Source: Caldisphaera lagunensis DSM 15908
Lineage (GTDB): Archaea > Thermoproteota > Thermoprotei_A > Sulfolobales > Acidilobaceae
Length of the DNA stretch: 64,000 nt
NCBI RefSeq assembly: GCF_000317795.1
Contig: NC_019791.1
Span: 496,001-560,000 of the forward strand
Reading direction: 5' to 3'
How positions within the stretch are numbered: the first letter of the stretch is position 1; each line of letters begins with the position of its first letter. Below, piece by piece: positions 14,577 through 60,908 of the stretch. Under the pieces are notes generated by a model that saw nothing but the letters and a program-made list of their open reading frames with translations, made no database searches and had not been told where the DNA came from. Both the position numbers and the translations under genes were made by a program.

Positions 14577-15410
14577 TTAAAATAATTTTAAAGGATTTTC
14601 ATTATTTAATGAAAAATAGAGGATAATTAAAACACCTCCCAAAATTGCATTTAAATCTTCCCTATTTCTCTTTAATAACTTATCTTTTGAGAGCAATTTG
14701 CTTAAAATGTTTGGATCATTTATATCTAGATCCGAAAATTCTTCTATTTTAAATAAATCCTTCCCTATATAAACATATGACTTTAAAGCTGCTTGTATAA
14801 CGTTTTTAGAGTTCATCAACATCTTTGAAAACTTCAACAAATTACTATAATGTTTTAAATTAAGCAAAAAACCTGAATCTATTTTTGATAAAATTTCAAA
14901 TACATCCCCTAGAGATCTTTCTTCGTACTCTATTGACTCTTTGGTAATGCCTGACCTTTCAAGCAAATTAATATAATTCGATAATCCTAAATCTTCTAAA
15001 GATTCTACAAATTCAACTGCATCTCTAGGCTTTCCTTTATATAATATCCTTGATAAAAAAGAATTTATACCATTAATAACGTTCTGTTTTATCCCTTCAG
15101 AATACCCATCAATTGATGATAAAACTATAGCAGCTGCATCAAGTCCCGGTAATGGTCTTTCGTTTATAGAATCAAAGGCATTCTTATAAGCAGAAGATAT
15201 TAAATGCCCTAATCCTAAGGATCTAGAATCTATATTTCCTAGAGCTAATTCCTTTCCTCTTCTATACGCTTCGTCCATAATATCAAAGACTTCTAATGCC
15301 TCTACAATTCTTTCTTCAAATTCTATTTCTGGCATAAATCTATGAATAGAACCAGGTTTTACTGGTGATGTTAATGTTATCATTAAGGCCCTTTTAATAT
15401 CTTTTATCAT
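14577..15410 (-). CDS. CitG-like triphosphoribosyl-dephospho-CoA synthase family protein
   Basis: 277 aa, mostly helical. The family signature is the N-terminal KPGSIHRF (about residues 18-25) in TSPVKPGSIHRFMPEIEFEER, followed by GLGHLISSAYKNAF and GLDAAAIVL. Bacterial CitG makes the citrate lyase prosthetic group, which archaea lack. Crenarchaeal members are common but their substrate is not settled, so only the family is claimed. ATG start after GGGAAG. The gene stands alone upstream of secE-spt5. Confidence 0.72.
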   Translation of the reverse strand: MIKDIKRALMITLTSPVKPGSIHRFMPEIEFEERIVEALEVFDIMDEAYRRGKELALGNIDSRSLGLGHLISSAYKNAFDSINERPLPGLDAAAIVLSSIDGYSEGIKQNVINGINSFLSRILYKGKPRDAVEFVESLEDLGLSNYINLLERSGITKESIEYEERSLGDVFEILSKIDSGFLLNLKHYSNLLKFSKMLMNSKNVIQAALKSYVYIGKDLFKIEEFSDLDINDPNILSKLLSKDKLLKRNREDLNAILGGVLIILYFSLNNENPLKLF

Positions 15411-15497
15411 GAAACGCTTCCCAGTATTTTGTAGATATTATGCTTTATAAACATATACCACAATATTTTTTAGAGACTACTTATTTTAAATTAAGTA

Positions 15498-16154
15498 TTA
15501 AGACTTAGAATTATCACTAACTTTTTGATTATTTTCTTGTTTTTCTATATTTATCGACCTCATTGATTGGCCCAATGCCTTAGCTATTGGTGATATTATG
15601 TTTATAAAAGCAATAAAGTCTTGATCAAGCATTAATTTTAGCATATCAGAAATGCTTCCACCACTATTAGATATTTTATTAATATTTGAAGATAAGTTAT
15701 TCATAAAAGTCTCAACAAATTTTAATAATGCGTCTAGGAATTGAATATTAAAAATTTGTTTTAATATGCCTAGAACTCTTGATATTATTTCCTTAACATA
15801 GTTTATAAATTTGTTAAAATAAGTTATTATACTATTTTGATCAAAGGATGCCATAAAATTATTTATTAAATTGCTTAAAACATTTGAAACATAATTTGAA
15901 AATCCAATAAGTGAATTTAAAAGATTTTCTTGAGTTTTTACAAGATTTTTAATATTTTCTTGTAATGCAGGATTTTGAGATATAAAATCTTGAGATTGAA
16001 GAGTATTGGCAATTGTCTTAAACATATTCATGGTAGGAATTAGCAGGGAATTAGATAAGTCTAAAACAATTTGAACAACCTTATCGGTTATTAAAGCAAT
16101 GTTGCTCATTAATTCATCTAATTTTATATTTCGATTAACCTCTAAATTGCTCAT
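15498..16154 (-). CDS. Hypothetical helical protein, Asn/Ile/Leu-rich, 218 aa
   Basis: Not recognised. Nearly the whole chain looks helical with hydrophobic repeats (IALITDKVVQIVLDLSNSLL, LLNSLIGFSNYVSNVLSNLI, YVKEIISRVLGILKQIFNI), rich in Asn, Ser and Ile. The helices look amphipathic and not like classical membrane spans. There are no Cys residues. ATG at 16154 after GGGAG. It could be a phasin-like or membrane-surface protein, but nothing in the sequence decides this. Confidence 0.65.
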   Translation of the reverse strand: MSNLEVNRNIKLDELMSNIALITDKVVQIVLDLSNSLLIPTMNMFKTIANTLQSQDFISQNPALQENIKNLVKTQENLLNSLIGFSNYVSNVLSNLINNFMASFDQNSIITYFNKFINYVKEIISRVLGILKQIFNIQFLDALLKFVETFMNNLSSNINKISNSGGSISDMLKLMLDQDFIAFINIISPIAKALGQSMRSINIEKQENNQKVSDNSKS

Positions 16155-16225
16155 TTCTAGCTCCCAATAATAAATTATAAACCTAAACTTATAAATTAGA
16201 TATAAAAATTATATTTTATTACAAT

Positions 16226-16567
16226 AAATGAAAGTCTCGCTGGTAGGGGAAGTAATAAGTTTCTACTAATGCGTTCTCCTGCTATTGCAACATTTTTTCA
16301 TAAAAATACTTAACTGAATCAAATGTATCAATAACTGCAGCTAGAAACTTATGGTGCTAATCTATAATCAATTGATGCTACCTTGCATTTACATTCATTT
16401 GCTAAATATCTCAATACATGATCATAGGAATCGCTAGATCCCCAAACAAAGCCTCCACCATGTAAATAAATTAGAATTCCTTGTGTTTCAACAATTTTTG
16501 GAATATAAATGCGAACAGGTATTTTAGATTCTCTACCATATATGAACTCATTTCTTATTTCCTTCAT
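16226..16567 (-). pseudogene. Decayed HSL-family carboxylesterase
   Basis: The 5' part encodes 72 residues of a hormone-sensitive-lipase-like alpha/beta hydrolase: YIPKIVETQGILIYLHGGGF (oxyanion HGGG) and VASIDYRLAP, then a stop. After a frameshift the same strand continues as KFLAAVIDTFDSVKYFYEK, and after a second break as VAIAGERISRNL. The last matches the family nucleophile elbow VAIAGDSAGGNL with the catalytic Ser lost. Everything C-terminal to this, including the catalytic Asp and His, is gone. Two frameshifts, a missing block and a lost nucleophile show it is dead. Confidence 0.85.
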
Positions 16568-17302
16568 TTCTATTTTAGGAGCAAACTGCTTTATTGCAAG
16601 TTAAATATATAATAGAAATCGATAAATTAAAAAGTTTCTTTGAAGAAAAATTTCTTTTACATGTAATTAACAGAATAAAGTCTTCTACAAATGAAATAAA
16701 TGAATAATTTGATAATTTTATGAAATAATTTTTAGAAATTTTATTGAAAGAAGTTAGAATTGATGCTAATGATACGAAAGAAAACTTTGATCATTTAAAT
16801 CTTTATTACTTTTTAACTAATTATAATACCTGTGCTTGTTTTATGTATTATTATAAATATTTTATTATATCATTTAATGTTGTTATTCTAAAAAATATTG
16901 AAATAAATGATAAAAGTAAAAAATTAAAAATAATAGAACTTAGCTAGCAATTATTGCAGATTAAATCTCATATAATTTTATTATGAATTCTATTGATAAT
17001 TTAAATGAATATATCGAAAGAGATTATGTCATAAATTTAGAAAGTAATCCTGTTGTATTTGATGATACAAGTTTAAACAATAATTATATAAAAAAGAATG
17101 GGGAAGCTAATCAAATGCTATGTTTATAATATCGAATTTATAAATCATAAAATTGTATTTAATATATTTAAAGCCATACTTTGCAATACCTTATGTTTTC
17201 ACTTATTTTACTATTATCTATATATTAACAGATTATTAAGCTTAAATTACTTATTATATTATTCTATGAATTTCCTTCATATTATTTTTATTATATTATA
17301 GC
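16568..17302. other. AT-rich, gene-poor stretch with decayed or tiny reading frames
   Basis: About 735 nt of very AT-rich DNA. Short frames occur: codons 16605-16707 read IEIDKLKSFFEEKFLLHVIN on the plus strand without a start; from 16744 LLKEVRIDANDTKENFDHLN; and an ATG frame at 16983-17129 of 48 codons (begins MNSIDNLNEYIERDYVINLE) without a ribosome-binding site. Codon composition of these pieces looks coding-like but no frame is intact, so a decayed gene is the simplest reading. Confidence 0.4.
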
Positions 17303-17326
17303 ATTGTTAACCCCCAGGTTAACAAT
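17303..17326. repeat. 24-bp palindrome, copy A
   Basis: Arm ATTGTTAACC, centre CCCA, then the exact reverse complement of the arm. It is one of five intergenic copies in this window (others at 42441, 46288, 53358 and 60679). It lies between the decayed esterase region and an IS605-like relic. Confidence 0.85.
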
Positions 17327-17468
17327 AATTCAATAGCATAAATTATATAATGGGATTAATTTTATGATACTAATAATTCTAATAATATGTTTACATTTAT
17401 CATTTTTTATTATTATACTACATAATACTTTTTCATTTTTAATGAAAATTTATCTTTTTTTAACTCTA

Positions 17469-17686
17469 TTAAGGTTAAAGGGATGAAAGGTCTTTTCCAT
17501 GAGGGAGAAATGGATAGTTCCTTGTAGAAAGATTTTTATAGACAAACAACAACTTATTAAATGGAACATAATTGAATGGTTCCGTTAGATGGAACCTCCA
17601 CTGTAGTGTAGAGGGATCAGGGTTGTTCTATGAAAAGGAGATCCTCATCGCGAGGGTGATCCGTATAGAAAGGCTGAGCGGTTCAC
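17469..17686 (+). mobile_element. Internally deleted IS200/IS605-like element, copy 1
   Basis: About 218 nt resembling the relic at 29076-29384. The left part (TTAAAGGG ... GAGGG ... GGATAG ... TAGAAAGATTTTTAT) has a BRE/TATA-like end. The right part carries the hairpin GGTTCC (17578-17583)/GGAACC (17591-17596), then CCTCATCGCGAGG, and ends GCGGTTCAC like IS605-family right ends. No tnpA or tnpB frame remains. The end lies 43 nt upstream of the McrB-like start. The retained 3' part is where TnpB elements encode their guide (omega/re) RNA. Confidence 0.6.
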
Positions 17687-17729
17687 TAAGGTGGATATCT
17701 ATAAATTATTTAGCTAAAAATTTCGAAGG

Positions 17730-19487
17730 GTGCAAGGAATGTATGGCCAATGGTTAAAGCCAAGAAAAGGTTTTGAATTTTTATTAGATTATAATTATGA
17801 TATAAATAATACAATTAACAAATTAAAAGAGTATGTCGAAAACAACAAATTTCTATTTTGCGCCTTTCCAGGACACTACGATCATTGGATGGAATCAATT
17901 AGATATTCCATTAAAGGAGAAATAGGTTTCACTTTATGGGGTGATACAGGTAGTGGTAATAAAGGAACAGACAAAGAAACAGGTATCGAATTTAAATCAT
18001 TGATTGAAAAGTATAGAAATCAGTTTTTAAATAAAAATGGTGAAAGCAATGAAATTAAACTAGAAAAACCATTATTTTCTCTATTTTATGTCACAGAAGG
18101 TAGTTCAAAAAATAACTATGGCTATATAGGTTTTGGTATAGTGACTGATATTAATTATGACTATTACAGGAATTTTATAGGATGGAAAGAAGAAAACGGT
18201 TATTTTAAAATACGATTCAGAATAAAAGTGCTTTATTTAAATAGTAAGACAATAAAAGATATAAAGGAACACATTGATAAAAATGAAGATTTTAAAAAGA
18301 TAAATCTATATGGAGAATTGGGAAGTGATTTAAAACTAATACCTATATCTAATACTTGCTATAATGAGTATAATAATCAAGTTAAGGATTATATAAAAGA
18401 GAAATTTGATAATCAAGAAGTAAAAAACACCTTGACTTTTTACCAAGATTTATATAATAAAGCAATTAATAAATCCTTATATTCTTCGTTTTCAGAAAAT
18501 CCTTCAATTTCACAACAAAATGAATCATTAATTAATGAAATTGAAGAAGAGAAAATTAAGGAAATAGAAAATAATCTAAAAGAAATTTTAAATTTAATTG
18601 AAATATCTGAAATAGGTAAATCTAATGAAGACAAATTAAATATGCTAATTAATTCTATTAAAAAAGGAAACCTTTTATTTGTAGGAGATCCTGGCACATT
18701 TAAAACAACCATTGCTAAAGATTTAGCAAAAATAATAACAAAAAGAAATGAGGTATCGATATATACAGCTAATTCTTTATGGTTTAGAAGAAATGTAATA
18801 GGTGGCGAAACACTATCTTCTGATGGTAAAATTTTTTGGAAATCAGGTATATTAATAAGGGCCTATAACAAGGCATCAGAAATAATTAATAGTAATGATA
18901 GGTATCATGTTGTTATAATAGATGAAATAAACAGAGCAGATATTGATAAAGCATTTGGAGAATTTCTAACCATAATTAATTCTCCTTTACCAGAAAATTG
19001 GGAAATAACAAGAGAGCTTATAGAGGAAATTAGAAATTATTATGAAAAAGATGAAGAGGCAGAAAAATTTTTAACAAATTACGAAAAGTTTAAGAATGAT
19101 CCATTAAAGAAAATAAGGTTTATAGCTACAATGAACCTCACTGATGTAAGGAATCTGTTTTATGTTGGTGAGGCCATAACAAGAAGATTTATTAGGTTTG
19201 ATTTTAAGCCGAAAGCATTAGATAATATTGTTGATAATTATAGTAAAAACAATAAAGATTGCATAGATAAAGATAAGATAAAAAATTTATTAAATTGTTT
19301 TGAAAAGAATAAAAATAAAGATAAAAAGATTCCGATACCTCTTTCATCTGTTTTAGATTCTTTGAAGTTATCTGATTGCAATTATGATAAGTTCATAGCT
19401 TATTTATTATCTACTATTGGTACAATAAATTCTAGCAAAATTAATTTTATTAAAAATAAAATAGAGGAGTGCCAAAAAGGACCATAG
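17730..19487 (+). CDS. McrB-like AAA+ ATPase with EVE/PUA-like N-terminal domain
   Basis: 585 aa. Residues 40-210 look like an EVE/YTH-type PUA-fold domain (FLFCAFPGHYDHW, SLFYVTEGSSKNNYGYIGFG, then IRFRIKVLYL), a fold that reads modified bases. Residues 265-300 are charged and helical. The AAA+ core has Walker A GDPGTFKT (319-326), Walker B VVIIDEINR (394-402), the McrB signature MNLTD (468-472) and an arginine finger in TRRF. In McrBC systems this subunit binds modified DNA and hydrolyses GTP to drive the nuclease partner, here the next gene 18 nt downstream. The start is GTG 17730 or ATG 17739. Neighbouring IS debris suggests horizontal gain. Confidence 0.85.
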   Translation: MQGMYGQWLKPRKGFEFLLDYNYDINNTINKLKEYVENNKFLFCAFPGHYDHWMESIRYSIKGEIGFTLWGDTGSGNKGTDKETGIEFKSLIEKYRNQFLNKNGESNEIKLEKPLFSLFYVTEGSSKNNYGYIGFGIVTDINYDYYRNFIGWKEENGYFKIRFRIKVLYLNSKTIKDIKEHIDKNEDFKKINLYGELGSDLKLIPISNTCYNEYNNQVKDYIKEKFDNQEVKNTLTFYQDLYNKAINKSLYSSFSENPSISQQNESLINEIEEEKIKEIENNLKEILNLIEISEIGKSNEDKLNMLINSIKKGNLLFVGDPGTFKTTIAKDLAKIITKRNEVSIYTANSLWFRRNVIGGETLSSDGKIFWKSGILIRAYNKASEIINSNDRYHVVIIDEINRADIDKAFGEFLTIINSPLPENWEITRELIEEIRNYYEKDEEAEKFLTNYEKFKNDPLKKIRFIATMNLTDVRNLFYVGEAITRRFIRFDFKPKALDNIVDNYSKNNKDCIDKDKIKNLLNCFEKNKNKDKKIPIPLSSVLDSLKLSDCNYDKFIAYLLSTIGTINSSKINFIKNKIEECQKGP

Positions 19488-19505
19488 ACAGTTAAGGTGT
19501 AAACA

Positions 19506-20768
19506 TTGATAATCAATAAGCAAAGATCAAATTATAAGAAAAGGATGAGCAAGGAATTAATAAGAAAAGTAGGGAAATATTATATAAGATATCAGAAAAA
19601 ATTGAATATTGTAAAGATATATGAGAAGCTTATAGGAGAAAACCCGGTTAATATTGATAAATATTCTTTATTATATTTGCAATCATCTATTGCTAATCTT
19701 ATTATAAGGGATCTTATTAGTATAGCTGAAAAAGCAAGAAAAGAGAAAATAACTTATAGAGAGTTAAAAGTAGAATATGATAAGGATATATTTGGAGAAA
19801 TTAGCATTGATCATACAATGAATTCTTTACCACAAGGCCTTTTTGCTTATTATACTTATAGAGAAGGATTAAATGCACCAGAATATTCAATACTAGGTTA
19901 TATTATAAGAAAATCAAGAAAAATTGCTTCATATTATTATGAGCAAATGAGATCTATACAAGACCCATCTATACAAGAAATAAAATATTTTGATTTTATT
20001 AATGAATTTAAAGATAATTTATCCAAGATTAAAAGAGTGTCCAAATATTTTCCCAAAGGATATTATAGAGATGAAATATATACTGATCCAGAGTGGCTAA
20101 AACGTGCATTTATGTCTTATAGACTATTAAAAAGTTTAAATGTTATTAAAGTCAGCGCTGAAATGCTTAAAGATTCTAGCAAAGAAAATTTAAGAAAAGT
20201 TTTGTATATGACTGAAAGCAAGCTATATGAGCTATACTTACTTTATATAGTTATAAAATACTTGGAAAGCAAGGGAAAAATAATTAAAAGAGTTAATGAT
20301 GACGGTATAATAGAATTAGATGATCTAAAAATATATTTTAATAAATCTTTACAATCATCTAATTTAAAGATGGTAGATAATTTTAGCGAAAGCAAAATAG
20401 AAAAATTTAAAGGAAGACCAGACATTTCTCTATTACAGAGCATCTCATCATTAAATGAAAAACACATTATAATTGAATGTAAATATTCGATGTCTCCTAG
20501 CTATATTACGGCAGGTAGATTTAAGATAATGGCATATTCATATGAATATAATCCGTTAACGGCAGTTTTAGCTATTCCAGGTTTATCAAAGAAAAATATT
20601 TATGATGAGGAGGATAGGGGAACATTAGAAATGTATGAGAAGGCTAAAGAAGAAGGTTATGTAGAATTTTCCTATGGCAATTACAATTCATTTATTGTCA
20701 TAATAAATCCATTACACGATGATAGAAAAAATATAAAACGAATGCATTTTCTTGATAATTACATATAA
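19506..20768 (+). CDS. McrC/DUF2357-like PD-(D/E)XK restriction nuclease
   Basis: 420 aa. The N-terminal half is helical with IDHTMNSLPQGLFAYYTYRE and APEYSILGYIIRKSRKI, recalling the ENR...L region of McrC/DUF2357 proteins. TESKLYELYLLYIVIKYLES precedes the nuclease core. The core reads GRPDISLL (Asp306), IIIECKY (Glu324, Lys326) and a later Arg-containing helix (AGRFKIMAYSYEY), a complete PD-(D/E)XK site. Paired with the McrB-like ATPase it should cut modified invading DNA. TTG start at 19506, 18 nt after the ATPase stop. Overall similarity to classical McrC is weak, so the call rests on motif order and context. Confidence 0.75.
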   Translation: MIINKQRSNYKKRMSKELIRKVGKYYIRYQKKLNIVKIYEKLIGENPVNIDKYSLLYLQSSIANLIIRDLISIAEKARKEKITYRELKVEYDKDIFGEISIDHTMNSLPQGLFAYYTYREGLNAPEYSILGYIIRKSRKIASYYYEQMRSIQDPSIQEIKYFDFINEFKDNLSKIKRVSKYFPKGYYRDEIYTDPEWLKRAFMSYRLLKSLNVIKVSAEMLKDSSKENLRKVLYMTESKLYELYLLYIVIKYLESKGKIIKRVNDDGIIELDDLKIYFNKSLQSSNLKMVDNFSESKIEKFKGRPDISLLQSISSLNEKHIIIECKYSMSPSYITAGRFKIMAYSYEYNPLTAVLAIPGLSKKNIYDEEDRGTLEMYEKAKEEGYVEFSYGNYNSFIVIINPLHDDRKNIKRMHFLDNYI

Positions 20769-20925
20769 ATTCATAATAATTATAAACATCATTATTCAAA
20801 TAGCTAATAATTAAATATATCAGACCTAAAATTATATAGAAAGTATAACTATGTTATCATATAAAGCAAACTTCAGTATTATTAAATTTAATTCTAAATT
20901 ATTATTGATTTTTATAATAAAGTGG

Positions 20926-21390
20926 TTAACCATCACATTTTAACCATTTATCGATTGATTCATAGAGTTCTTTAAAAGATTCGTCATTTGAATTAATTAA
21001 TGCATTAAATGCATCATGAAGTAATACATGATGTAATAACTCATCCTTATAGATAAGCTTTAATGCAAATCTAACAAAATCATTGTTTGAATTTAAGAAG
21101 TTAGTTAAAAATTTTATTGCCTCTCTTTCTTCCATTATATGATTCTTAAGCTCTTTTAAAACTTCTTCAGATTCTTCCTTTAATAGAATATTATATTTAT
21201 TTTCTTTTATCGTATCTTCTATGATTTCATAAATTAAACTATGTTTATATGAATCTAAAGAAATAACAGTTAATATTAATCTTAATATTGGCGATTTTAC
21301 CTTATCCATAGTTTCTTTGTGAGATTTTGAATGGTTTTCTTCTATTTCTTTCCATTCACTGATTTTCTCTGCAAATTCTTTGTCATACAT
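20926..21390 (-). CDS. Ferritin-like four-helix protein
   Basis: About 154 aa, all helical. Spaced acidic and His residues resemble a ferritin-like di-iron bundle: SYKHSLIYEIIEDTI, LKNHIMEEREAIKF and YKDELLHHVLLHDAF. Whether all four carboxylates are present cannot be settled by eye, so metal binding is inferred. The ATG at 21390 has GGTG 5 nt upstream. A GTG at 21396 overlaps that site. It faces the restriction cassette tail-to-tail. Confidence 0.6.
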   Translation of the reverse strand: MYDKEFAEKISEWKEIEENHSKSHKETMDKVKSPILRLILTVISLDSYKHSLIYEIIEDTIKENKYNILLKEESEEVLKELKNHIMEEREAIKFLTNFLNSNNDFVRFALKLIYKDELLHHVLLHDAFNALINSNDESFKELYESIDKWLKCDG

Positions 21391-22007
21391 GTTCACACCG
21401 TTTCATATATTATTGTTTAGGGCTTTAAATATATATATGGAAATAAAATGTATTTAAAAATAAATAATAAAAATCACTAATCATTTCTCTATATAAAATT
21501 TTTATAAGTTATTTAATTATAGCATTATATTATTTATAATACAACAACTCACTTGTTAAGGGCTTGAGCGATAGCATGAAATTTAAATTCCAAATATAGT
21601 AAAAATGGACAATATGAGGAAAGCTGTGGAAATAACAACGAAGCTATACAGTAGTTTTTACAAGTTCGGCCTCTGACCTTCTCTCCTCCCTGAAAGATTG
21701 TTCCCTCCATGATTTGTATTTTCATAGAATTACTTAAGAAATGACTCACCATTTTAAACTATTATTAAAAATTAAAATTCTAATTACTAAAACTTAGCAA
21801 ATCTTTCTCAAATAAAAAGAAAAACATTGAAGTATTTTGCTTTCCATCGAAAATTCATATAAAATAATTTGAACATAAATTTATAATATTTATAATATTT
21901 TAGATCCTAACCAATATCTAAATTAAATTTGAACATATATAATTAAATAGAAAGTTATAATAATCAAAACACTAAAAACTAAATTTATTACGTAAACAAA
22001 TTATTGA
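21391..22007. other. Gene-free 617 nt with a probable transposase fragment
   Basis: Mostly AT-rich. On the minus strand, 21549-21752 contains a frame reading CPFLLYLEFKFHAIAQALNK, which recalls the LYLEGLSFRAIARLL helix-turn-helix segment of ISC-type DDE transposases. It is preceded by non-matching residues and has no continuation. It also has locally higher G+C than its surroundings. A decayed insertion sequence is plausible but not proven. Nothing else was seen. Confidence 0.3.
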
Positions 22008-22250
22008 CTATATTTTGATTACACATGCTGCAGAGTTACTTATTAATCTAGGTGCAATTTGTTCAGAAATTAAGTATATATCGTATTCTTTCTCCTTTGC
22101 ATTATATTCTACATTTGTATCAGTATAAACTAATATATCGAATCCTGTTTTGCTAATTACATAAATTTCATTATCATCAACAACATCTGTTGGTATTAAA
22201 TTACCTATTTCTTTTACCATATTTATTTCATATAAGACATGAAAACTCAA
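22008..22250 (-). CDS. Hypothetical protein, up to 80 aa
   Basis: Not recognised. Alternating strands (EIYVISKTGFDILVYTDTNVEY, KEYDIYLISEQIAPRLISN) suggest a small beta-rich domain, and a single Cys is near the C-terminus. The start may be TTG at 22250 or ATG at 22220 (MVKEIGNLIP), with no clear ribosome-binding site for either. It is divergent from the DsrE-like gene, with 54 nt between starts. Confidence 0.5.
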   Translation of the reverse strand: MSFHVLYEINMVKEIGNLIPTDVVDDNEIYVISKTGFDILVYTDTNVEYNAKEKEYDIYLISEQIAPRLISNSAACVIKI

Positions 22251-22304
22251 ATTAATGGGTAATAATCTTTTAGGGAGGAGAGGAACTCAGATTATGGGGG
22301 ATCT

Positions 22305-22670
22305 ATGATTGAGAAAATAAAGGTTTTATTTCATATAGATAGAAATGATGAAGAAACATTAATACTATCTCTTAATAACATAAGAAACTTTATTGAAGAG
22401 GCAAATGCAGAAAACTATACGTATGAGATCATTTTATTGGCTAATTACAAAGCACCTTTATTGTTTTTAAAAAATAATATTAACAAAAATACATTGGAAT
22501 TTATTAAAAATTTAAAAGAAAAAGGAGTAAAGGTTTTGATATGTGAAAAATCTATGAAATCACTTAAAATAACTAAGGAGGAATTAATAGATGAATGTGA
22601 AATAACTCCCTCTGGAGTATTTACAATTGCTAAACTAGAAAAGTTAGGATTTGCTTATATTAAACCATAA
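22305..22670 (+). CDS. DsrE-family protein
   Basis: 121 aa with the DsrE/F-like fold. It begins KVLFHIDRNDEETLILSLNN, has central LLANYKAPLLFLKNN and LKEKGVKVLICEKSM (Cys in the usual loop), and ends EITPSGVFTIAKLEKLGFAYIKP, the typical C-terminal block. DsrE proteins carry sulfur as persulfide in sulfur trafficking, but many archaeal members are uncharacterised and no other sulfur gene is adjacent. ATG after GGGGGAT. Confidence 0.82.
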   Translation: MIEKIKVLFHIDRNDEETLILSLNNIRNFIEEANAENYTYEIILLANYKAPLLFLKNNINKNTLEFIKNLKEKGVKVLICEKSMKSLKITKEELIDECEITPSGVFTIAKLEKLGFAYIKP

Positions 22671-22758
22671 ATTTGTTTATATTTAATAGTTTATTTTTTT
22701 AAAAAATATGTTATCAGCCTTATATACTTTACTCTGTAATAAATATGCGGTGAATTAG

Positions 22759-23130
22759 ATGATAGAATTTTTATCAACAATAACAGTAACAAATGCTTCA
22801 ACAACTCAGATGTTTTTTAATGCTTTACATAACCCTTATGAACTAGTAACATTGCTAATAGAATTTTTCCTAGGGCTAGGATTAGGTTATGTTTCAATTA
22901 AAATTTTGAAATATATAATAGCATTTATTGTTATAGTTATAATTGGAGTTATATTAAATGCTTGGAGTTTTGGAGGAAGCCTAAGTAAAACAATTTCTAC
23001 ACTACAATCACAAGCAATAAGCTTAGAGCCATTATTAAGAAATCTTATGTTTACATTAGGTCTACTAACTATGGGTCCAATACTTCTTGGTTTCATAATT
23101 GGTATACTAATAGGTTTAGCGAGACATTAA
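22759..23130 (+). CDS. Small integral membrane protein, 123 aa
   Basis: Not recognised. Three to four hydrophobic segments are visible: LVTLLIEFFLGLGLGYVSI, IIAFIVIVIIGVILNAWSF and LMFTLGLLTMGPILLGFII. The N-terminus is short and Thr/Asn-rich. ATG with GGTGA 5 nt upstream. It lies between the DsrE-like gene and tRNA-Gly. Confidence 0.7.
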   Translation: MIEFLSTITVTNASTTQMFFNALHNPYELVTLLIEFFLGLGLGYVSIKILKYIIAFIVIVIIGVILNAWSFGGSLSKTISTLQSQAISLEPLLRNLMFTLGLLTMGPILLGFIIGILIGLARH

Positions 23131-23213
23131 ATTAATTATTTTTTAATTATTTTAAATTATTTTATTTATAGATCCATTATAATAAATTTCATCTAAAGCT
23201 TTTGATAGTAAAA

Positions 23214-23289
23214 TGCGGCGGCCGGGATTTGAACCCGGGACCTCTGGCGTGGCGGGCCAGCGTCCTAATCCAGGCTAGACTACCGCCGC
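23214..23289 (-). tRNA. tRNA-Gly (GCC)
   Basis: Reading on the minus strand, acceptor GCGGCGG pairs with CCGCCGC and the discriminator is A. The D stem is GTCT/GGAC, the anticodon stem CTGGC/GCCAG, and the loop CCGCCAC has anticodon GCC. The T arm is CCGGG-TTCAAAT-CCCGG. It has no intron and no encoded CCA. Position 33 is C instead of the usual U, as in the tRNA-Gln of this window. Confidence 0.92.
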
Positions 23290-23316
23290 CCTCACGAATT
23301 ATAGAACATTCTTAGG

Positions 23317-23327
23317 GTTTTTAAATT
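23317..23327 (-). promoter_or_regulatory. Probable TATA box of tRNA-Gly
   Basis: On the minus strand, TTTAATTTAAAAACC lies 28-38 nt upstream of the tRNA 5' end, the position expected for an archaeal BRE/TATA element. Confidence 0.5.
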
Positions 23328-23407
23328 AAACATTTAAAATTTAGCATATTAATACTTTTTAAACAAATATAGATAAGTGTCAAACGTAACTTAACTTCGG
23401 GGAGAAA

Positions 23408-24565
23408 ATGATAAAGTTTAAATGGATATACAATAATGATGAGATAAACTTTGGTCCTTCATCAATACAAGAGTTAAAAAATTATCTAAAAGATAATATG
23501 AAAGTTATTATAGTAACTGGAAAGATGTCAGCGAAGTTAAGCGGCGCCTTAGATGATACAATTAAAATATTAAAAGAAAATGGGGTTTCCTATTATATAT
23601 TCGATAATGTTTCTCCAAATCCTTTATCTTCACAAGCTGATGAACTTGCTAAAATGATAATTTCCTACAATCCAAATGCAATAATAGCTATTGGAGGAGG
23701 GAGCGTTATTGATACTGCAAAACTGGGCGCAGCAACGGCAGCTAATGGAGGCAAAACAGTTGATTACCTATATGGAAAAAGAAAGGTAGAAAAAATTATA
23801 CCAATATATGCTATTAACTTAACTCATGGAACTGGTTCTGAAGCTAATAGATATGCAAATACAACTGATACAGAAAGAGGTGATAAGCTAGGTAACGCTA
23901 TTTGTTATCCTAAAGCTGCCTTTGATGATCCAAAATATACATTATCTATGCCAAAAGAAGAAGTGTTATGTACTACATTCGATGCGTTTTATCATGCATA
24001 CGAATCCTCTACAACATCAAATAGTCCTCCTTTAGTTCATATGCTATCCCTTGAGGTAGTAAATCAAATTAAAGAAAACTTACCTTTAGCTATACAAAAA
24101 CTAGATGATATAAATCCAAGGTACTATTTATTATATGCATCAATGCTAGCCGGTGTTTCTATAGATTTAAGTCCAACAAATATAATACATGCATTAGAAA
24201 ATATTATGAGTGGATTAGTTCCTTCTTTGCCTCATGGATGTGGTTTAGCCTTAATAGGACCATTATTAGCTCCTTTAATACACAAATCTTCTCCAAATGA
24301 ATCCACAAAGATTTTAAAAATATTAAATCCAAATATAAAGCCTAATTCTGATGATTCTTTAATTACCAAAACATTAATAGAGTTCCATAGCTCTGTTGGA
24401 TTTAATAAAAAGTTAAGTGATTATGGATTTGGGCGTGATATGTTAAGAGAATCGATAAGAAGGGCCTTTGCTAATCCAGTAGTAGTTGATAGACTCAAAA
24501 ATAGATTATATGGAACAAACATTGATGAAAAAATTCTGATTAACCTATTGGAAAATTCATTATAA
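23408..24565 (+). CDS. Iron-containing alcohol dehydrogenase family protein
   Basis: 385 aa, group III ADH fold. The NAD(P)-binding loop is IAIGGGSVIDTAK, with NLTHGTGSEANRY after it. Metal ligands fit Asp and His in TTFDAFYHAYES and the two His in NIIHALENIMSG and LPHGCGLALIGP. It probably oxidises or reduces a primary alcohol, aldehyde or lactaldehyde, but the substrate is unknown. ATG after GGGGAG. It stands alone downstream of tRNA-Gly on the opposite strand. Confidence 0.88.
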   Translation: MIKFKWIYNNDEINFGPSSIQELKNYLKDNMKVIIVTGKMSAKLSGALDDTIKILKENGVSYYIFDNVSPNPLSSQADELAKMIISYNPNAIIAIGGGSVIDTAKLGAATAANGGKTVDYLYGKRKVEKIIPIYAINLTHGTGSEANRYANTTDTERGDKLGNAICYPKAAFDDPKYTLSMPKEEVLCTTFDAFYHAYESSTTSNSPPLVHMLSLEVVNQIKENLPLAIQKLDDINPRYYLLYASMLAGVSIDLSPTNIIHALENIMSGLVPSLPHGCGLALIGPLLAPLIHKSSPNESTKILKILNPNIKPNSDDSLITKTLIEFHSSVGFNKKLSDYGFGRDMLRESIRRAFANPVVVDRLKNRLYGTNIDEKILINLLENSL

Positions 24566-24665
24566 TAAAAATATAAATAATCAGATTTTTAGATTTAAAA
24601 GAAGAACAGACATTTAAACTGTGAATTTCACATTATTTTTTGTAAAGTCATAAGAGGTGCCATTG

Positions 24666-24995
24666 GTGGCAAGAAGAAGGAGGAAGAAATCACTAAAACC
24701 AAAGAAGCCAAGACATCCGAGCAGATATTTCCAATGCCCTAGATGTGGATCTGTTACATTAACCATAGATTTCGCTAAAATTGGAGGAAATGAAGACGAA
24801 AAAATGGCTATCGCAAAATGTGGTAATTGCCATCTATATTGTGAATTAAAGGTTCCTAGGGTTTTAGATAGAGTTGATGTATATAATAAAATAGTAGATC
24901 TAAGTTATGATAATAAACTAAGCGAATGTGAAAAAACTGAGAGTGAAACGGAAGCTGAAACGGAAGAAGAGGTAGATGATGAAGGTGAAATATAA
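24666..24995 (+). CDS. Elf1-like transcription elongation factor
   Basis: 109 aa. A basic N-terminus (RRRRKKSLKPKKPRHPSR) is followed by one zinc ribbon (CPRCGSVTLTIDF ... AKCGNCHLYCELKVP) and an acidic tail. This matches archaeal Elf1 homologues that bind RNA polymerase. The GTG at 24666 has GAGGTG ending 6 nt upstream and gives MARRRRKK. The in-frame GTG at 24657 is part of that ribosome-binding site. Confidence 0.9.
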   Translation: MARRRRKKSLKPKKPRHPSRYFQCPRCGSVTLTIDFAKIGGNEDEKMAIAKCGNCHLYCELKVPRVLDRVDVYNKIVDLSYDNKLSECEKTESETEAETEEEVDDEGEI

Positions 24996-25047
24996 CAAAT
25001 TTAAAATGGCCCTTGAATGAATAATATTAATTGATTAGGGTGAAAAA

Positions 25048-25797
25048 TTGAAAGATAAGACATTTAAAAGATTGTTAAAAAATAAAGACAATAAAATTCA
25101 TCTTACATTAATTGATCCAGATAAAACAAACCCAGAAATAGCTAAAAAAATATCTTTGAATGCATATGAAGCTGGATCTGATGCCATACTAATAGGGGGT
25201 TCTCTAGGAGTTTATGAACCCCATCTTACAGAGCTTGTAAAATCTTGTAAAGAATCTGGTTTGCCTGTGATACTTTTTCCAGGCAATATTAATGGATTAA
25301 CTTCTTCTGCAGATGCTGTATTATTTATGCTTTTATTAAATAGTGATGATCCCTATTATGTTGGCGGGGTTCAGGCCCAAGCAGCTCCTATAATATTAAG
25401 AATGGGCCTTGAAACCATACCTACTGCCTATATAATAATAGGTCATGGTGGTGCTGCTGGATATATTGGAAAGGCTAGGCCTATTCCTTATGAAAGAGGT
25501 GATATTGCAGCAGCTTATTCTTTAGCCGGAGCAATGTTGGGCGCTAAAATTATTTATTTAGAAGCAGGGAGTGGTGCGCCTTATCCAATACCACCTCAAA
25601 CAATATCATTAGTTAGGAGAGCATTAGATCAAATAGAATATGATGGATTGCTGATTGTTGGTGGAGGAATAAATAGTCCAGAGAGCGCTAAGGAGGCCAT
25701 AAAAGCTGGAGCCGATGGCATTGTTAATGGCACAATAGTTGAAAAAGATCCCCTTTCTCTTTATCATATGATAAGGGCAATAAGAAATTCTTATTGA
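25048..25797 (+). CDS. Geranylgeranylglyceryl phosphate synthase
   Basis: A 249-aa TIM barrel that forms the first ether bond of archaeal membrane lipids from glycerol-1-phosphate and geranylgeranyl diphosphate. Motifs: HLTLIDPDKT, DAILIGGSLGV, VILFPGN, YLEAGSGAPYPIP, IVGGGINSPESA and GADGIVNGTIVE. TTG start after GGGTGA. It is 52 nt downstream of the Elf1 gene and may be cotranscribed with it. Confidence 0.96.
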   Translation: MKDKTFKRLLKNKDNKIHLTLIDPDKTNPEIAKKISLNAYEAGSDAILIGGSLGVYEPHLTELVKSCKESGLPVILFPGNINGLTSSADAVLFMLLLNSDDPYYVGGVQAQAAPIILRMGLETIPTAYIIIGHGGAAGYIGKARPIPYERGDIAAAYSLAGAMLGAKIIYLEAGSGAPYPIPPQTISLVRRALDQIEYDGLLIVGGGINSPESAKEAIKAGADGIVNGTIVEKDPLSLYHMIRAIRNSY

Positions 25798-29075: not shown

Positions 29076-29384
29076 GGAGATTAAGGGGCGGAAGTCCCCT
29101 TCTGCGAGGGATGGATAGCCCCCTTATAGAAATGTTTTTATGGTAATAATAAAATAATAAATATAAGGCCTCGGCTGAAAGTGCTGGGTCATACCCTAGG
29201 GACTGGGGATTAAGCCTGTGGAGAGCAGACCCTCCATAACTCCTCTTCCACACGGGATATAACGAAACGGTTCCGTTTGATGGAACCTCCGCTGTGGATG
29301 TAGGGAGATCGAGGTTGCTCTAAGAAGCAGGAAATCCTCACCGCGAGGTGGGGATGCTCCGTCCTTAAGAGCAGGGTAGTTCAC
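29076..29384 (+). mobile_element. Internally deleted IS200/IS605-like element, copy 2
   Basis: About 309 nt, G+C-rich against the background. The left part is GGGGCGGAAGTCCCC ... GAGGGATGGATAG ... TATAGAAATGTTTTTAT, a BRE/TATA-like end. A piece of probable tnpB 3' coding follows (YPRDWGLSLWRADPP frame, 29196-29252), then the hairpin GGTTCC (29269-29274)/GGAACC (29282-29287), CCTCACCGCGAGGTGGGG, and the right end GAGCAGGGTAGTTCAC. tnpA and most of tnpB are missing. The right end runs into the 3' end of the AMMECR1 gene and includes its stop codon. Confidence 0.65.
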
Positions 29385-46180: not shown

Positions 46181-46287
46181 ACATAAAATTAAAACAAAAA
46201 ACAAAAGTTTTTTTGAATGATTTTGTTTTTGCTCCCTCCTTATTATTAAGAACATTGGAACAAGCTTCTTCTTAAAAAATAATCTTC

Positions 46288-46311
46288 ATTGTTAACCCCC
46301 CGGTTAACAAT
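46288..46311. repeat. 24-bp palindrome, copy C
   Basis: Arm ATTGTTAACC, centre CCCC, then the exact reverse complement of the arm. It lies between speD and the TatD-like gene, both on the plus strand. Confidence 0.85.
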
Positions 46312-60477: not shown

Positions 60478-60908
60478 TTATTTTCCCCATTTTTTTGTTG
60501 ATAAAAAATTTACTTATAAGGATTTCTATAGTTACTATAGAGCTATATATAGGTTATATAGAAAGATAGAAAATATGAGAAGGTTTAATTAAATTGAGAA
60601 ATACTATAGTTATAATAATATAAAATTTTCATTATATTTAAAATATAATTTTAATTTTATTATTAAAACAAATAAGACATTGTTAACCGGGGGGTTAACA
60701 ATGAAAATGAATGTAGCTTAACAATTTATATGAAAGATTACCTTTTTAAATAATTGAATGAGCAAAGAACACATTTCTATATGAGATGTTTGCAAATCTA
60801 TTGTAGGTTGAAGATGATATATAATATGTTTATTTTCATTAATTATTATCGAATTAAACATTAAAAGAGATATTTCTTTACATGTTTCATAGAAAAATTT
60901 AAAGAATC
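60478..60908. other. 431-nt AT-rich intergenic region
   Basis: Upstream of the MFS gene are several TATA-like and CTATAG-type short symmetric segments (60520-60560). Palindrome copy E is at 60679-60702. The rest shows no gene or RNA. Confidence 0.5.
60679..60702. repeat. 24-bp palindrome, copy E
   Basis: Arm ATTGTTAACC, centre GGGG, then the exact reverse complement of the arm. The centre is inverted relative to copies A-C. It lies between two minus-strand genes. Confidence 0.85.

What the first reader, a model, noticed from the sequence alone, without database searches (positions are those of the whole stretch)
17730..20768. EVE-like McrB ATPase plus divergent PD-(D/E)XK partner: a McrBC-like cassette
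Seen: an ATPase with MNLTD, Walker A and B and an N-terminal domain resembling EVE/YTH PUA folds, followed 18 nt later by a protein with D306, E324 and K326 in a PD-(D/E)XK arrangement. Known: McrBC systems cut modified DNA, and archaeal McrB can carry YTH/EVE readers. Inferred: a modification-dependent antiviral system of a divergent subtype, bordered by IS605-like debris, a dead esterase and transposase remnants, which suggests a gained defence locus. The second protein has little obvious similarity to classical McrC.
Basis: partly seen in the sequence, partly recalled or inferred. Interest (0 to 1): 0.72.

Follow-up and report, generated by a model that had tools for sequence, protein, structure and literature searches.

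The report
Divergent archaeal McrBC-like restriction pair
This is a two-gene, recently acquired defence-type cassette of a hot-spring archaeon, a distant relative of the bacterial McrBC enzymes that cut chemically modified DNA; it belongs to a branch common in Sulfolobales and other Thermoproteota that the protein-family libraries tried here do not recognise.

Summary
The finding is real and its reading largely right. P0001 (585 aa) is an McrB-type AAA+ protein: McrB is the best solved relative of the family profile (E 4e-27), and the McrB NxxD motif, DEINRA box and RRF are in place. P0002 (420 aa) matches nothing in Pfam, PADLOC or NCBIfam, but is a very divergent McrC. Its profile aligns to classical McrC over 272 columns (E 1.6e-6; shuffled and unrelated controls far lower). 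Thermoproteota homologues bridge it to PF10117. Four of its five best fold matches among 350,542 PDB chains are McrC. The PD-(D/E)XK residues are invariant in 29 homologues. The N-terminal domain is probably YTH/EVE-like: EVE strand order, first 30 fold matches all YTH domains, some relatives with an EVE domain there; no single score is significant. Both genes, and no third, recur together in 49 of 50 loci, in varying order and with exchanged N-termini. Homologues are patchy (32 of 197 genomes of the order). The pair lies in a 6.06-kb island absent at the same site in a close relative. IS605 and transposase debris was not confirmed; an esterase fragment was. Best reading: a divergent McrBC clade, a modification-dependent translocase-nuclease. 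Activity, ligand and defence role are untested.

The parts
16232..22293 (.). genomic island of about 6.06 kb holding the pair; absent at the same site in same-genus genome G143
   Evidence: blastn: the flanks 14577-16231 and 22294-25797 are contiguous in G143 (sites 1692/1689), 84-85% identical
17730..19487 (+). P0001, McrB-like AAA+ protein with N-terminal reader-type domain (probable start ATG 17739)
17847..18254 (+). N-terminal domain (about residues 40-175), probably YTH/EVE (PUA-like); Trp70 and Trp152 invariant in 24 homologues
18657..19229 (+). AAA+ domain (residues 310-500)
   Evidence: AAA_5 E 2.7e-15; McrB profile match E 4e-27
18684..18707 (+). Walker A, GDPGTFKT (Phe at the usual Gly position)
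   Evidence: alignment
18921..18935 (+). Walker B and McrB-type box DEINR (D398-R402)
   Evidence: E399, N401, R402 invariant, D398 nearly invariant
19134..19145 (+). NxxD McrB signature motif (N469-L-T-D472)
   Evidence: N469 and D472 invariant in 30; motif defined in PMC11090510
19506..20768 (+). P0002, divergent McrC homologue with PD-(D/E)XK nuclease domain (possible start ATG 19545)
20178..20585 (+). PD-(D/E)XK nuclease core (about residues 225-360), P305-D306 at 20418-20423, E324 at 20475, K326 at 20481, L240-Y241-E242 helix
   Evidence: invariant columns; model topology alpha-beta-beta-beta-alpha-beta

Best explanation
P0001 and P0002 form a divergent, archaeal two-gene McrBC system. 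P0001 is the McrB subunit: an AAA+ NTPase (GTP preferred by analogy) of the NxxD class that should assemble into a hexamer, with an N-terminal PUA-fold (YTH/EVE-like) domain that binds a modified base, probably in an aromatic pocket that uses Trp70 and Trp152. P0002 is the McrC subunit: an N-terminal part that docks on the ring and stimulates hydrolysis, fused to a PD-(D/E)XK nuclease. Foreign DNA with the modification is bound, the ring translocates, and P0002 cuts. The cassette moves between Thermoproteota as a defence gene pair. Shown here: pair conservation, homology of both subunits to McrB and McrC, intact nuclease and NxxD motifs, presence on an acquired island, purifying selection in relatives. 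Inferred: nucleotide, modified-base ligand, DNA rather than RNA target, cleavage, antiviral role.
For: ATPase: among solved structures the family profile matches McrB best (6hz4 E 4.1e-27, 6ut6, 7vsr, TgMcrB 6ut3 E 1.2e-18; p97 and NorQ far weaker). NxxD (N469, D472), E399-N401-R402 and R485-R486-F487 invariant in 30. Partner: hhalign with three classical PF10117 McrC proteins E 1.6e-6 over 272 columns including the N-terminal part, score 55.5 against at most 21.9 for 15 shuffles and 24.2 for 12 unrelated families. With the bridging McrC group A7, E 6.6e-11; A7 members score PF10117 up to E 4.2e-5 just under its cut-off, and the P0002-family HMM hits the same proteins (E 1.5e-9 and 6e-6). L126 hits PDDEXK_7 (E 4e-4) and the P0002 family (E 3.7e-7). 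Foldseek ranks 1, 2, 3 and 5 of 350,542 PDB chains are T. gammatolerans and E. coli McrC. [quoted passage not shown] first 30 fold hits are YTH domains, with MspJI and LpnPI further down; EVE in the same slot in L074 (E 7.2e-4), L121 and L127. Pair: both genes in 49 of 50 loci, no third conserved gene. dN/dS 0.13-0.42 in resolvable close pairs.
Against: Both models have low confidence (pLDDT 62 and 58) and no single Foldseek E-value is below 0.1. No Pfam YTH, EVE or ASCH match in any of 24 N-terminal domains, and no PDB sequence hit. No McrBC, DUF2357 or PDDEXK_7 Pfam hit in any of 29 P0002-family members. The Walker A glycine is Phe in this copy, which could impair nucleotide binding. No biochemical data and no phage or plasmid copy.
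Confidence: 0.78

Rival explanations
1. An McrBC-derived machine that acts on RNA or blocks translation (CoCoNuT-like) rather than cutting modified DNA; the YTH-like domain would read a modified RNA base.
For: The closest solved fold hits of the N-terminus are YTHDC1 domains, which bind m6A RNA; CoCoNuTs use YTH-like domains and are predicted to target RNA (PMC11090510).
Against: CoCoNuTs have the NxD motif and are nearly absent from archaea (PMC11090510); this family has NxxD throughout, no third gene is conserved nearby, and the PD-(D/E)XK site is intact.
Confidence: 0.1
2. An unmodified-DNA or DNA-structure sensing defence system: the McrB/McrC engine is kept but the N-terminal domain recognises a sequence, an end or a viral protein instead of a modified base.
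For: The N-terminal slot is exchanged between very different domains in relatives (L051 second copy, L062, L117), and no EVE/YTH profile hit is significant for P0001's own domain.
Against: Concordant YTH-first fold ranking, invariant Trp70/Trp152, EVE domains in the same slot in relatives.
Confidence: 0.2
3. A housekeeping AAA+/nuclease pair (repair or replication) unrelated to defence.
For: Purifying selection in relatives; deletion of McrBC in Thermococcus kodakarensis lowered growth (PMC13385129).
Against: Patchy presence (32 of 197 genomes of the order), empty site in a close relative, family f1 copies in three separate places on the tree, varying gene order and swapped N-termini.
Confidence: 0.05

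Closest known systems
Thermococcus gammatolerans McrBC (PDB 6ut3-6ut8; YTH-McrB plus McrC)
   Same: NxxD AAA+ motor with N-terminal YTH-type reader; McrC partner with PD-(D/E)XK nuclease; hyperthermophilic archaeal host; TgMcrC is the top fold hit of P0002
   Different: P0002 has no PF10117 match; P0001's N-terminal domain has no sequence-level YTH match; McrC sequence similarity is only visible at profile level
Escherichia coli McrBC (PDB 6hz4, 6ut6)
   Same: Best sequence match of the ATPase; same two-gene design; its McrC is among the top fold hits of P0002
   Different: E. coli uses DUF3578 (ADAM) to read methylcytosine (PMC11090510); different N-terminal domain here
EVE-McrB systems (PMC7641849)
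   Same: EVE-like reader fused to McrB with McrC-type partner; relatives L074, L121 and L127 have an EVE domain in this slot
   Different: P0001's own domain scores below significance against EVE profiles
CoCoNuT systems (PMC11090510)
   Same: McrB/McrC core and YTH-like domains
   Different: NxD motif, extra RNase/coiled-coil modules, nearly absent in archaea; the NxD motif is not found here and no third gene is conserved

Membership tests
McrB (McrBC type IV restriction) | AAA+ domain closest to McrB among AAA+ families | tested here: met
   PDB profile search: McrB E 4.1e-27 against 6.4e-13 or weaker for the best non-McrB hits
McrB (McrBC type IV restriction) | Nx(xx)D signature motif | tested here: met
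   N469 and D472 invariant in 30 homologues
McrB (McrBC type IV restriction) | intact Walker A and B | tested here: inconclusive
   Walker B intact, Lys325 invariant, but Walker A Gly is Phe in P0001 and L054
McrB (McrBC type IV restriction) | GTP specificity, hexamer, McrC-stimulated hydrolysis | not testable with these tools
   needs protein
McrC | match to curated McrBC/DUF2357/PDDEXK_7 models above cut-off | tested here: not met
   none of 29 members match; bridging homologues just below cut-off
McrC | homology to classical McrC over N-terminal and nuclease parts | tested here: met
   hhalign E 1.6e-6 over 272 columns with controls; fold ranking
McrC | PD-(D/E)XK catalytic residues | tested here: met
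   P305, D306, E324, K326 invariant in 29
McrC | encoded next to McrB | tested here: met
   49 of 50 loci hold both, adjacent
EVE / YTH (PUA-like) domain | significant sequence match to EVE or YTH profile | tested here: not met
   hhalign to EVE scores 17-22 against 7-14 shuffled
EVE / YTH (PUA-like) domain | PUA-like fold | tested here: inconclusive
   EVE strand order and first 30 fold hits YTH, but E at least 0.1 on a pLDDT 62 model
CoCoNuT | NxD motif and RNase modules | tested here: not met
   NxxD in all; no such conserved neighbour
Horizontally acquired cassette | patchy presence, empty site, incongruent phylogeny | tested here: met

The most novel reading that the evidence does not exclude
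A deep, Thermoproteota-centred branch of the McrBC family that current models miss: a McrC subfamily of its own, an exchangeable specificity slot, and as its commonest reader a new PUA-fold subfamily (Trp70/Trp152 pocket) that is neither EVE nor classical YTH and reads a base modification of viruses of hot acid springs.
Probability: 0.35. Interest if true: 0.55.

Novelty: new variant of a known kind. Interest (0 to 1): 0.42.

Why it matters
The genomes searched show almost no McrC by the standard model (5 of 200 Thermoproteota for PF10117), yet the P0002 family is in 41 of 300. McrBC-type systems are therefore much commoner in this phylum than annotation suggests. Profiles A1 and A2 give a way to annotate them. 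It also raises a testable question: what modified base in crenarchaeal viruses or plasmids is being read, at the temperatures and acidity where these hosts live.

Tried and rejected
Family-wide alignment A1 as query in genome contigs: no stretch conserved enough; a narrower alignment gave 5 loci. Viral contigs, phages and plasmids: no relatives. PF09823 DUF2357 search rang nowhere, controls included, so it is uninformative. PADLOC hits of the ATPase to IetA, mad8, TRIP13 and MkoA judged to be generic AAA similarity; IetAS is set aside because its known partner is a protease (own knowledge), not a nuclease. PDB profile hit 4ic1 of P0002 (E 2.5e-4) taken to reflect the shared PD-(D/E)XK core. 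IS605 debris: repeat copies have no transposase nearby. The paper on the T. gammatolerans McrB YTH domain is not held, so its pocket residues were not compared.

Full report
Setting. The window is bases 496001-560000 of a single-contig archaeal genome of 1,546,846 bases. The size and the kinship of a same-genus genome to 'Acidilobaceae archaeon UBA158' fit Caldisphaera lagunensis; this name is inference from memory, not a tool result.

Observation. P0001 has an AAA_5 domain at residues 314-487 and P0002 has no convincing match in Pfam, PADLOC or NCBIfam. Homologues were found in 32 of 197 genomes of the order with P0002. Of 50 loci examined, 49 hold both families and no third family is comparably conserved nearby. 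Gene order and orientation vary: ATPase first, nuclease first, or divergent. This rules out chance and shows a two-gene unit. Homologues suggest the real starts: ATG 17739 for P0001 and perhaps ATG 19545 for P0002.

The ATPase. McrB is the best solved relative by single sequence (6hz4, E 8e-8) and by profile (E 4.1e-27). The NxxD motif that defines the larger McrB branch (PMC11090510), the E-N-R of the Walker B box and RRF are invariant in 30 homologues. The Walker A of P0001 reads GDPGTFKT; Phe replaces the usual Gly here and in the sister copy L054 only. The effect is unknown.

The partner. P0002 has P305-D306, E324 and K326 invariant in 29 homologues, preceded by an invariant Leu-Tyr-Glu. 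Four lines make it McrC. (a) Profile-profile comparison with three classical PF10117 McrC proteins gives E 1.6e-6 over 272 columns, both N-terminal and nuclease parts, score 55.5 against at most 21.9 in 15 shuffles and 24.2 in 12 unrelated families. (b) A bridging group next to McrB-type ATPases in other Thermoproteota (L120-L128) is hit by the P0002-family HMM (E 1e-10 to 4e-5), and three of its members also score PF10117 at E 4e-5 to 1e-3. (c) L126 hits PDDEXK_7 and the P0002 family. (d) Among 350,542 PDB chains, ranks 1, 2, 3 and 5 for the P0002 model are McrC of T. gammatolerans and E. coli. Each fold E-value alone is weak (0.12-1.2) and the model is of low confidence (pLDDT 58); the agreement is what counts.

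The N-terminal domain. No sequence search finds EVE, YTH or ASCH for P0001's own domain. [quoted passage not shown] The first 30 Foldseek matches are all YTH domains, with MspJI and LpnPI, which are modification-dependent restriction enzymes, further down the list. Profile comparison with EVE gives scores of 17-22 against 7-14 for shuffles, in register over the last strands. Relatives L074, L121 and L127 carry an EVE domain in that slot, just below the Pfam cut-off (E 2e-4 to 7e-4). Trp70, Gly136 and Trp152 are invariant in 24 homologues; that the two Trp form the base pocket as in YTH is inference. In L051 (second copy), L062 and L117 the slot holds unrelated sequence, as expected of an exchangeable specificity module. 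I put the PUA-like assignment at about 0.75.

Origin. In same-genus genome G143 the window's left flank (to 16231) and right flank (from 22294) are contiguous, so a 6.06-kb block is present here and absent there. G143 has its own pair elsewhere, only distantly related. In a nuclease tree the window copy groups with a copy from another family (97/94), and the three copies of the window's own family lie in three places. Close pairs evolve under constraint (dN/dS 0.13-0.42 where it can be computed). So the pair is mobile, not core, and maintained in relatives. The esterase fragment is confirmed; IS605 or transposase remnants are not.

Mechanism. By analogy with McrBC (PMC7680126): a ring of P0001 translocates on DNA bound through its reader domains, P0002 inserts into the ring, boosts hydrolysis, and cuts. 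Homology, motifs and pairing are shown here; nucleotide, ligand, DNA cleavage and antiviral effect are inferred.

Known or new. No paper found in the held library describes this family; the McrBC census in PMC11090510 covers nearly 34,000 systems and may contain some members, which I could not check. I file it as a new variant of a known kind.

Noticed in passing
window 22008-22250 (-) and 20926-21396 (-): Inside the same island: the last 63 positions of an encapsulin shell protein (Linocin_M18, E 1.1e-6), a likely remnant, and a 156-aa ORF whose helical E..H pattern looks ferritin-like to the eye; possibly the wreck of an encapsulin/cargo locus.
   Followed up: partly
window 17575-17655; also G000:C1:525266-525348 (window 29266-29348) and G000:C1:760897-760979: An 82-bp element, 82% identical, three copies in the genome and intergenic where checked, no transposase nearby; nature unknown.
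   Followed up: partly
window 17302-17326, 46287-46311, 60679-60703: A 25-nt piece of a GTTAACC...GGTTAAC inverted repeat occurs three times in the window at 96% identity.
   Followed up: no
window 21672-21725 and 22239-22291: Inverted copies (78%) of a 54-nt sequence; the second ends within 2 nt of the right border of the island, so it may be the end of the element that brought it in.
   Followed up: no
L051:8733-15735: Two P0002/P0001-type pairs in tandem in one genome; the second ATPase has a completely different N-terminal domain.
   Followed up: partly
L190 (G075:C8:91001-106000): At the same site another same-genus genome carries unrelated genes (aldehyde dehydrogenase, aminotransferase) and an inverted flank gene, so the site near tRNA-Gly (window 23214-23289) looks like a variable spot.
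   Followed up: partly
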